Positions 46,841-49,278 of a stretch of DNA of 64,000 nt are shown in pieces. The position numbers and the translations under genes are program-made. Within the stretch, counting starts at the first letter, position 1. The number at the start of each line of letters is the position of its first letter. Under the pieces are notes generated by a model. The model saw nothing but the letters and a program-made list of their open reading frames with translations, was not told the origin of the DNA and made no database searches. The stretch comes from Nitrospirota bacterium (lineage in GTDB: Bacteria > Nitrospirota > Thermodesulfovibrionia > Thermodesulfovibrionales > JdFR-88), in the NCBI GenBank assembly GCA_021789555.1, contig JAJYJK010000008.1, positions 1 through 64,000 on the forward strand, given 5' to 3'.

Positions 46841-48482
46841 CGACCCTAAAACCGGCACGCCGGAAATCACCACGGACCAAAACCAGGCGGCAATAATCGC
46901 GGACGCCCTGGCGCAGCCGCGGCAGGACCTGGACACGGAGAAAAAGCCTCTCATCGATGTCGAGGTCGCATCGCAGATCTCGGACCCCTGGTGGGCGTAC
47001 TACACCGGCAAAATCCTTCTGAACCCGGACAAGACCCTCCGCACCGAGGGGCTCCAGAACACCGAACTGTACGAGGACCTGCTCAGGGACGCGCTCGTCC
47101 GTTCGAATCTCCAGACGCGGAGACTCGCTGTCATCGGCAAGGAATGGGACGTCGTCCCCGGCGGCGATCGCCGCGCGGACCAGAAAATTGCGGATTACGT
47201 GACCGACGTCCTGGAGAACTTCGATTTCGATACCGCGCGGTTCGCTCTCCTCCAGGGGATACTCACCGGCTTCAAGGTCTCCGAGATAATGTGGGAATAC
47301 TCGGAGGGCGACGTATGGATAAAGGAGCTGATCGCCAAGCCCACGCGCAGATGGTCTTTCGGCCTCGCTCGCGAGCTGCGGATGCTCACGCGCGCGAACA
47401 CGTTCGAGGGGACCCCGGTGCCGGACCGCAAGTTCCAGGTGTTCCGTAACGCGGCGGACAACGGCTCGCCCTATGGGGACGGCCTCGGCAGCTCGCTTTA
47501 CTGGCTCGTCTGGTTCAAGAAGAACGCCATAAAATTCTGGATGATTTTCTCGGAAAAATTCGGGTCTCCCACGGCGGTGGGCACATACCCGCCGGGGACG
47601 ACGAAGGACCAGCAGGATGCGCTGCTCGCGGCCCTCGCCGCGATACAGCAGGAATCGGCCGTGAAAATCCCGGAGACGATGAGCGTCTCGCTCCTGGAGG
47701 CCCAGCGCACGGGCTCTATGAACAATTACGAGATGCTGCTGAGTTTTTTTAACCAGGAGATCACGACCCTCATCCTGGGGCAGACGCTCACGACCGCCTC
47801 CGGCCACTCCGGCCGGTCGGGCTCCGGCGGCCAGGCCGCGGCGAAGACGCACGAGGAGGTCCGGGAGGACTATATCAAGGCGGATGCGGACCTGCTTTCA
47901 AACGCGCTCAACAGCCAGTTGATCCGCTGGCTGGTGGACTATAATTTTCCCGGAGTAAAAAAATATCCCAAACTGTGGATCCGCACGGATGCGGAGGCGG
48001 ACCTTAAACCTCTGTCGGACCGCGATGCGATCCTGCAAAAAATGGGCCTGCGGATACCGGCCTCGTACCTGTACGACACCTACGGCATCCCCGAGCCGCA
48101 GGAGGGCGAGGAGGTTTTAACGCCCATAGCGGGAGGCGCGGCGGCCGGCGCGGGCAACGCCTCAACCGGCGGCGATGCCGGGACATTCGCGGAAAACCAG
48201 AAACGCCTCGTCAGCGGCGCGCACATTCTGGCGAGGAAGGCGCACGTGGTGGATGATCTCGCAAGCCGTCTTCACCGGGACGCCCCCGCGGATGATTTTA
48301 TGGCACCGGTGATGGAACTGGTCAAAAACGCCCGCAGCTATGACGATATTCGGGACGGCATCCAAAAACTGTATGGCAAAATTGATCCCGCTAAAATGGG
48401 CGCGATAATGCAACGCGCCATCGCCGCGGCTGATTTAGCCGGACGCGCCCTGGAAGCGGGCGCGGGGGGCGAGAATGTTTAA
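46833..48482 (+). CDS. Portal protein (DUF935, Mu gp29-like)
   Basis: LYEDLLRDALVRSNLQTRRLAVIGKEWDVVPGGD...GILTGFKVSEIMWEYSEG...FQVFRNAADNGSPYGDGLGSSLYWLVWFKKNAIKFW...LILGQTLT. Confidence 0.92.
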   Translation: MPDDPKTGTPEITTDQNQAAIIADALAQPRQDLDTEKKPLIDVEVASQISDPWWAYYTGKILLNPDKTLRTEGLQNTELYEDLLRDALVRSNLQTRRLAVIGKEWDVVPGGDRRADQKIADYVTDVLENFDFDTARFALLQGILTGFKVSEIMWEYSEGDVWIKELIAKPTRRWSFGLARELRMLTRANTFEGTPVPDRKFQVFRNAADNGSPYGDGLGSSLYWLVWFKKNAIKFWMIFSEKFGSPTAVGTYPPGTTKDQQDALLAALAAIQQESAVKIPETMSVSLLEAQRTGSMNNYEMLLSFFNQEITTLILGQTLTTASGHSGRSGSGGQAAAKTHEEVREDYIKADADLLSNALNSQLIRWLVDYNFPGVKKYPKLWIRTDAEADLKPLSDRDAILQKMGLRIPASYLYDTYGIPEPQEGEEVLTPIAGGAAAGAGNASTGGDAGTFAENQKRLVSGAHILARKAHVVDDLASRLHRDAPADDFMAPVMELVKNARSYDDIRDGIQKLYGKIDPAKMGAIMQRAIAAADLAGRALEAGAGGENV

Positions 48483-49278
48483 TGCCCGGAAAACGCCTGA
48501 AAACCCGTTTATAAACGCACTGGGGGCATTTCCCAGGGCCATCCGTGGCTCCCATAATCTGTTTTTTACGGAGGCGTATCCTCTCAGCCTCCCTTTCGAC
48601 GAGGCGATTAAATTTTTCCGCCAGAAAATCAACCTCTCATCCAAGGACTGGACGGAGATATGGGAGGCCATGCACACACGCGCCTTCACCGTCGCCGGCG
48701 CGATGAGGGACGATCTCCTGCATGACCTGCGTGACGCGATCGACAAGGCCCTGGCCCAGGGAACGACCATAGAGGATTTCCGCCAGTCATTTGACCAGAC
48801 CGTCCATAAATACGGCTGGGACTACAAGGGCGCCCGCGGCTGGCGCACCGGCGTCATATTCGATACCAACCTCCGCACCGCCTATGCCGCCGGCCACTAT
48901 CAGCAGATGACTCAGCCTGAGGTTTTGCGGGAGCGGCCCTATTGGCAGTATATAGGCGGCCTCTCAGAGCATCCCCGGCCGCTGCACCTCGAGTGGAGCG
49001 GCACGATATTGCGGGCGGACGATCCCTGGTGGAACACGCACTACCCGCCCAACGGCTGGGGCTGAAAATGCATTGTGGTGAGCGTCTCCGGTCCGGAGAT
49101 GTCGCGGGACGGGCTTAAAGTCAATAAAGCGCCTGATGACGGCACGTATGAATGGACGAACCCGCACACGGGGGAGATCATCGAGGTGCCTAAGGGCATA
49201 GACCCGGGGTGGGCGTATAACCCCGGGAAGGTGGCCGGGGGCCTCGTCTCTCCCGTACCGTTCGGAGGTGAAAAATAA
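48475..49278 (+). CDS. Mu gpF-like minor head/morphogenesis protein with in-frame UGA at 49063-49065 (candidate Sec)
   Basis: ORF 48475-49065 ends ...DDPWWNTHYPPNGWG*. The same frame continues KCIVVSVSGPEMSRDGLKVNKAPDDGTYEW...PGWAYNPGK to 49278, i.e. the expected C-terminus of the family (PPNGWG-C-x-C...YNPG). Confidence 0.85.
49083..49101 (+). promoter_or_regulatory. Candidate bacterial SECIS-like hairpin with GGUCC apical loop
   Basis: CGTCTCC-GGTCC-GGAGATG: 7-bp stem (one G-U pair); apical loop starts 24 nt after the UGA. Confidence 0.5.

What the first reader, a model, noticed from the sequence alone, without database searches (positions are those of the whole stretch)
48475..49278. Candidate phage selenoprotein: Mu gpF-like head protein with UGA at a conserved Cys
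The gpF-like ORF stops at a UGA (49063-49065) after ...WWNTHYPPNGWG. The identical frame continues KCIVVSVSGPEMSRDGLKVNKAPDDGTYEWTNPHTGEIIEVPKGIDPGWAYNPGK for 71 codons to 49278, where gpG begins. In the phage Mu F/SPP1 gp7-like head-morphogenesis family the matching motif is PPNGWxCxC, so UGA sits at the first Cys of the CxC pair. A Cys position is where Sec/Cys exchange occurs. The surrounding prophage genes are otherwise intact, and the chromosome next door carries selB. I do not know whether a Sec-containing gpF has been reported before.
Basis: partly seen in the sequence, partly recalled or inferred. Interest (0 to 1): 0.96.

Follow-up and report, generated by a model that had tools for sequence, protein, structure and literature searches.

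The report
Phage head protein containing selenocysteine
A bacterial virus's head protein appears to be made with selenocysteine, the rare selenium-containing 21st amino acid, and dozens of related phages do the same at one or both of the same two positions; I found no earlier report of a phage head protein that needs selenium.

Summary
The observation and the interpretation both hold. The Mu-F-like (PF04233) gene at 48475 reads PPNGWG-UGA-KC and continues in frame to 49275. Among 120 close homologues, 117 have Cys at this column and the other three end exactly there.

This is not an isolated stop. IMG/VR contains 22 gpF genes with UGA at the first Cys of the CxC motif, 14 with UGA at the second and 3 with both. 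Control scans found no gpF gene with UAA/UAG at either Cys, or with UGA at the adjacent conserved Trp.

Downstream of the UGA, 38 of 39 distinct genes have a strong hairpin with G at the start of the loop, against 6 of 42 Cys-type genes (score comparison p = 1e-12). In the largest group the stem covaries. The window's hairpin has 9 bp.

The sequence after the UGA is under purifying selection (dN/dS 0.05 against the nearest UGA relative). The host genome has selA, selB, selC (tRNA-Sec), and a selD that itself has an in-frame UGA. Sec and Cys forms exchanged at least 7 times on well-supported branches.

A 2026 inventory of 119 prokaryotic selenoprotein families lists no phage protein. Sec insertion has not been shown chemically, and the function of the CxC site is inferred.

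The parts
48475..49275 (+). gpF-like minor head protein gene, read through UGA as Sec (267 aa; stop TAA 49276-49278)
49063..49065 (+). in-frame UGA, proposed selenocysteine codon (residue 197), first position of the CxC motif
49082..49102 (+). SECIS-like hairpin GCGUCUCCG-GUC-CGGAGAUGU, 9 bp, loop 25 nt after the UGA
   Evidence: p = 0.004 against synonymous shuffles; family-wide test
49069..49071 (+). codon of the second Cys of the CxC motif (TGC, residue 199); UGA in other phages
46830..48482 (+). Mu-type portal gene directly upstream
   Evidence: PF06074 366.5 bits
49278..49832 (+). gpG-like virion morphogenesis gene directly downstream, ends in an ordinary UGA stop
28636..30519 (-). selB, Sec-specific elongation factor, in the chromosome near the prophage
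   Evidence: TIGR00475 361.9 bits, cut-off 242.25

Best explanation
The gpF gene of this Mu-like prophage encodes a selenoprotein. The host's tRNA-Sec, converted to its Sec form by SelA with selenium activated by SelD, is brought to the UGA by SelB. SelB binds the hairpin at 49082-49102, and selenocysteine is inserted at residue 197 in place of the first Cys of the conserved CxC pair. Translation then continues through the last 70 codons to give a full-length minor head protein. Shown here by sequence: the conserved column, the recurrence of UGA at these two codons, the hairpin and its covariation, selection after the UGA, and the host machinery. Inferred: actual Sec insertion, presence of the protein in the virion, and that selenium gives a faster or more reversible redox (selenenylsulfide/disulfide) or nucleophilic site that helps this portal-associated protein in head assembly or genome delivery.
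For: Cys at the column in 117 of 120 homologues. UGA at the first Cys in 22, second Cys in 14 and both in 3 IMG/VR gpF contigs, with no gpF match for UAA/UAG at either Cys or UGA at the Trp. Hairpin in 38/39 UGA genes against 6/42 Cys genes; score comparison p = 1.1e-12; synonymous-shuffle combined p 4.8e-19 against 0.95. Stem covariation. dN/dS 0.054 after the UGA against the nearest UGA relative. Host selA, selB, selC, and a selD with UGA at its Sec position. Repeated Sec/Cys exchange on the tree.
Against: No chemical or proteomic proof. Many hosts of the other UGA phages are unknown, so co-occurrence with Sec machinery was tested in only three genomes: two have a clear tRNA-Sec, one MAG (L312, a 1.6 kb contig, probably misbinned) does not. 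Synonymous-shuffle p-values of several single genes are above 0.05. The nearest relatives P0001 and P0003 have Cys, so Sec is not essential to the family. The redox role is not tested, and the structure model has no PDB match.
Confidence: 0.93

Rival explanations
1. The UGA is a chance nonsense mutation or sequencing error in a decaying prophage; the downstream frame is open only because the event is recent.
For: Cys codons can become UGA in one step, and premature stops do occur in related prophages, for example a TAG in L505.
Against: UGA recurs at exactly these two codons in dozens of diverged phages, while UGA at the equally mutable Trp is absent. The sequence after the UGA is under purifying selection between UGA relatives. 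A hairpin specific to UGA genes follows.
Confidence: 0.02
2. UGA is both a stop and a Sec codon by design: the short product ending at PPNGWG and the long Sec product each have a role, with the ratio set by selenium supply.
For: Sec decoding competes with termination in bacteria (general knowledge). Some UGA gpFs have about 170-250 residues after the UGA, including a C-terminal extension (PF18810 in Cys relatives).
Against: Cys relatives make only the long form, so the short form is not required in most phages. The CxC motif lies at the end of the MuF domain, which the short form would break.
Confidence: 0.1
3. The UGA is read by ordinary near-cognate read-through or by a changed genetic code, inserting Trp or Cys rather than Sec.
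For: The frame is open after the UGA, and low-level UGA read-through exists in bacteria (general knowledge).
Against: UGA ends gpG and other genes in the same prophage. UGA replaces Cys and never the conserved Trp. The host has complete Sec machinery and a hairpin follows at SECIS distance.
Confidence: 0.03
4. The downstream part is a separate protein started by reinitiation after the UGA, so gpF is naturally split in two.
For: GTG GTG lies four codons after the UGA in the window and in several relatives.
Against: The candidate starts are not conserved among UGA genes (for example L198 and L142). The Cys two codons after the UGA lies before any such start, and in the scan that required nothing after the UGA it was always Cys or UGA. 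Cys relatives make one continuous protein.
Confidence: 0.02

Closest known systems
MuF domain family, PF04233 (phage Mu gpF/gp30, SPP1 gp7)
   Same: Domain match above the curated cut-off, gene directly after the portal gene, CxC motif at the end of the domain.
   Different: Known members have Cys at both CxC positions; here UGA (Sec) replaces the first Cys and a SECIS-like hairpin follows.
UxC/CxU prokaryotic selenoproteins (for example thioredoxin-like Sec.1 CxU and Sec.2 UxC, listed in PMC13188914)
   Same: Sec and Cys separated by one residue, in either order; Cys homologues; downstream SECIS.
   Different: Cellular proteins, several with thioredoxin-like folds; MuF is a phage head protein and its structure model has no significant PDB match.
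Basilisk-like Bacillus phages with a tRNA-Sec gene (PMC6145125)
   Same: An earlier link between phages and Sec decoding.
   Different: In the passages read, only a tRNA gene is reported. Here the phage supplies a predicted selenoprotein gene and relies on host machinery; ARAGORN found no tRNA-Sec on the loci scanned.

Membership tests
Bacterial selenoprotein | In-frame UGA with conserved coding sequence after it | tested here: met
   open for 70 codons, domain match spans it, dN/dS 0.054 after the UGA
Bacterial selenoprotein | UGA aligns with a conserved Cys in homologues | tested here: met
   117 of 120; the other three end there
Bacterial selenoprotein | Hairpin just after the UGA with G in a small apical loop (bacterial SECIS) | tested here: met
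   window hairpin 9 bp, p = 0.004; covariation in the largest group of relatives
Bacterial selenoprotein | Host has selA, selB, selC and selD | tested here: met
Bacterial selenoprotein | Other genes with UGA at the same codon | tested here: met
Bacterial selenoprotein | Selenium or Sec found in the protein | not testable with these tools
   needs mass spectrometry or 75Se labelling
MuF family (PF04233) | Profile score above the curated cut-off | tested here: met
   58.1 bits, cut-off 29.6
MuF family (PF04233) | Gene directly downstream of the portal gene | tested here: met
   criterion from PMC5576092
MuF family (PF04233) | Protein is in the virion, near the portal | not testable with these tools
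   known for SPP1 gp7 (PMC5576092); not shown here
SPP1 gp7 minor capsid domain (TIGR01641) | Profile score above the curated cut-off | tested here: not met
   27.2 bits, cut-off 39.65; so not filed under this narrower model

The most novel reading that the evidence does not exclude
The CxC pair of the MuF domain is a chemically active (redox or nucleophilic) centre of a virion protein that acts during assembly or after ejection. Phages in selenium-using hosts have repeatedly switched it to Sec, so that making the full head protein, and any domain fused after the UGA, depends on the host's selenium supply.
Probability: 0.45. Interest if true: 0.95.

Novelty: new variant of a known kind. Interest (0 to 1): 0.9.

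Why it matters
The prokaryotic selenoproteins listed so far in the inventory I could read include no phage protein; this is a virus head protein family with Sec. It suggests that the CxC site of the MuF domain, whose function has been called unknown, does chemistry rather than only structure, and it would make particle production in some phages depend on selenium. It also shows that protein databases hold truncated gpF records (18 ending before the first Cys and 4 before the second, in the sets examined) that are probably misannotated selenoproteins.

Tried and rejected
Rfam scan of the window: no hit at the gathering threshold. Plain MFE z-scores over 51 nt gave a weaker signal than the local hairpin test. 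PDB sequence search gave no meaningful relative. The structure model is good for residues 131-255, but Foldseek against the PDB gave no match with E at or below 0.001, so the role of CxC could not be read from the fold. Searches of isolated phages gave only hits under 60% identity, and their codons were not read, so an isolated phage with the UGA form was neither found nor excluded. A 401-genome sample of the phylum of L374's host found no further genome with the UGA pattern. One likely source, the Olavius symbiont selenoproteome paper, is not held. Considered and rejected: pseudogene or sequencing error, changed genetic code, and reinitiation (see rivals).

Full report
OBSERVATION. The gpF-like ORF starts at 48475 and meets UGA at 49063-49065 after ...DPWWNTHYPPNGWG. 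The frame then runs on for 70 codons to 49275, with TAA at 49276-49278 overlapping the gpG start. Read through, it is a 267-residue protein with a Phage_Mu_F match (PF04233, 58.1 bits, cut-off 29.6) covering residues 84-201, which includes the UGA. The gene lies between a Mu-type portal (PF06074, 366.5 bits) and a gpG-like gene (PF05069). Terminase, contractile-tail sheath and minor tail genes are also present, so this is a Mu-like prophage with an otherwise normal-looking morphogenesis region. UGA is an ordinary stop for gpG and other prophage genes.

THE COLUMN. Of 120 best homologues in a 5.8-billion-protein library, 117 have Cys at the UGA column. The remaining three are the window's own record and P0025 and P0029 (about 85% identical), which end exactly one residue earlier. 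In two searches together, 18 gpF records end just before the first Cys and 4 just before the second (16 and 3 with the standard NGW motif, plus P0248, P0324 and P0259 with a varied motif). Only one other record with the standard motif ends within twelve residues after the Trp.

RECURRENCE AND CONTROLS. A DNA pattern for P-N-G-W-x-UGA-x-Cys found 22 gpF genes in IMG/VR, with the frame open past the UGA (L098 ends with its contig soon after). UGA at the second Cys (CxU) was run as a control and turned out to be a second form: 14 gpF contigs. UGA at both (UxU) occurs in three contigs, two distinct. Other stops are absent: UAA/UAG at the first Cys gave no match at all, and UAA/UAG at the second Cys gave 4 matches, none gpF. 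This matters less for UAA/UAG, which lie two mutations from Cys. The sharper control is UGA at the conserved Trp, one mutation away: 18 matches, none gpF. Searching PPNGWG-UGA with nothing required afterwards gave 29 stretches; 25 are gpF, and all 25 have Cys or UGA two codons later. Metagenome and genome scans brought the UxC set, window included, to 44 loci, 30 distinct.

SECIS. I scored the best uninterrupted hairpin with a loop of 3-8 nt, G in the first two loop positions, and loop start 16-34 nt after the first-Cys codon. The 39 distinct UGA genes far exceed 42 Cys genes of the same family (Mann-Whitney p = 1.1e-12). Against synonymous-codon shuffles that keep the protein, the combined p is 4.8e-19 for UGA genes and 0.95 for Cys genes; related genes are not independent, so these values overstate the case. 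At a score threshold of 12, 38 of 39 UGA and 6 of 42 Cys genes have the hairpin. The window's own hairpin is GCGUCUCCG-GUC-CGGAGAUGU, 49082-49102, p = 0.004. The largest group uses a CGUGA loop at one fixed place. Its stem covaries (C-G to G-C and U-A), 92.4% of cells pair, no shuffle of 500 reaches the covariation score, and sliding the partner destroys the pairing. Other groups have unrelated stems at nearby places, for example UCUCGCUC-GGU-GAGCGAGA in L142, UCGAUCCG-GUCU-CGGAUCGA in L204 and AGCCUCUCU-GGC-AGAGAGGUU in L217. One Cys gene nested among UGA genes, L021, keeps a similar hairpin, which may be a remnant.

SELECTION AND HISTORY. Between the window and its nearest UGA relative L448 (83% DNA identity before the UGA), dN/dS is 0.115 before and 0.054 after the UGA. 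Most other pairs with a usable estimate are also low after the UGA; L154/L185 (0.91 over 45 poorly conserved codons) is an exception. A tree of 82 gpF domains, with the two Cys columns masked, needs 13 Sec/Cys changes, of which at least 7 are forced by well-supported branches. The four-state count is 19 (quick method, direction not inferred). In independent pairs on supported branches the hairpin goes with Sec in about 5 of 6 and rarely the other way; that test alone is too small to reach 0.05.

HOST. The 98.8% complete assembly has tRNA-Sec (73.1 bits, ARAGORN anticodon TCA), selA (584 bits), selB in this window (361.9 bits) and selD (333 bits). That selD itself contains an in-frame UGA, in SGCAG-UGA-ASK, the Sec position of SelD (UxxK motif in PMC13188914). 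The Desulfobacteraceae MAG with L374 also has tRNA-Sec. The WOR-3 MAG with L312 did not clearly have one, but L312 is a 1.6 kb contig close to L374 and probably misbinned. No tRNA-Sec was found on the UGA-gpF loci scanned, so these phages appear to borrow host machinery. The named relatives of the window's SelB include Nitrospirota and Thermodesulfovibrionales MAGs at about 60% identity; I did not establish the host's name.

WHAT IT DOES. MuF proteins are portal-associated head proteins. SPP1 gp7 is present in one or two copies per capsid, and the functions of the MuF domain and of gpF are called unknown (PMC5576092). Some MuF proteins carry C-terminal domains thought to be delivered with the DNA (PMC5512222). 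Sec at either or both Cys, with the partner always Cys or Sec, fits a paired redox site, as in UxC and CxU selenoproteins listed in PMC13188914. That function is inference: the predicted structure (residues 131-255 confident) has no significant PDB match.

NOVELTY. A May 2026 inventory of 119 prokaryotic selenoprotein families or subfamilies has no phage, virus, capsid or PF04233 entry (PMC13188914). Searches of open-access full text found no phage selenoprotein; the nearest is a tRNA-Sec gene in Basilisk-like phages (PMC6145125). Most subscription papers and all preprints were out of reach, so priority is likely, not certain. The kind (selenoprotein) and the protein (MuF) are both known; a phage head protein as a selenoprotein, with two interchangeable Sec positions, is the new variant.

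Noticed in passing
L490 (host contig C66:13161-14087, reverse strand): The host's SelD has an in-frame UGA in SGCAG-UGA-ASK, so it is itself a predicted selenoprotein.
   Followed up: partly
L021, hairpin after the CxC codons: A Cys-type gpF nested among UGA-type genes keeps a hairpin (TTCCGC-GCGTGAA-GTGGAA) at the SECIS position, possibly a remnant of a lost Sec codon.
   Followed up: partly
L168, L209, L172, L204, L457 and related loci: UGA-type gpFs with about 170-250 residues after the UGA; close Cys relatives of gpF carry a PF18810 domain there, so synthesis of the extension would depend on Sec decoding.
   Followed up: no
L312 (WOR-3 MAG contig, 1.6 kb): Close to the Desulfobacteraceae L374 gpF and the MAG has no clear tRNA-Sec; the contig is probably misbinned.
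   Followed up: partly
L505: A gpF homologue in the same phylum with an in-frame TAG, which looks like an ordinary pseudogene; the position of the TAG was not checked.
   Followed up: no
window 10595-11662 (-) and 9999-10592 (-): A DNA cytosine methyltransferase-like gene next to an HNH-endonuclease-like gene, possibly a restriction-modification pair (judged from the translations, not searched).
   Followed up: no
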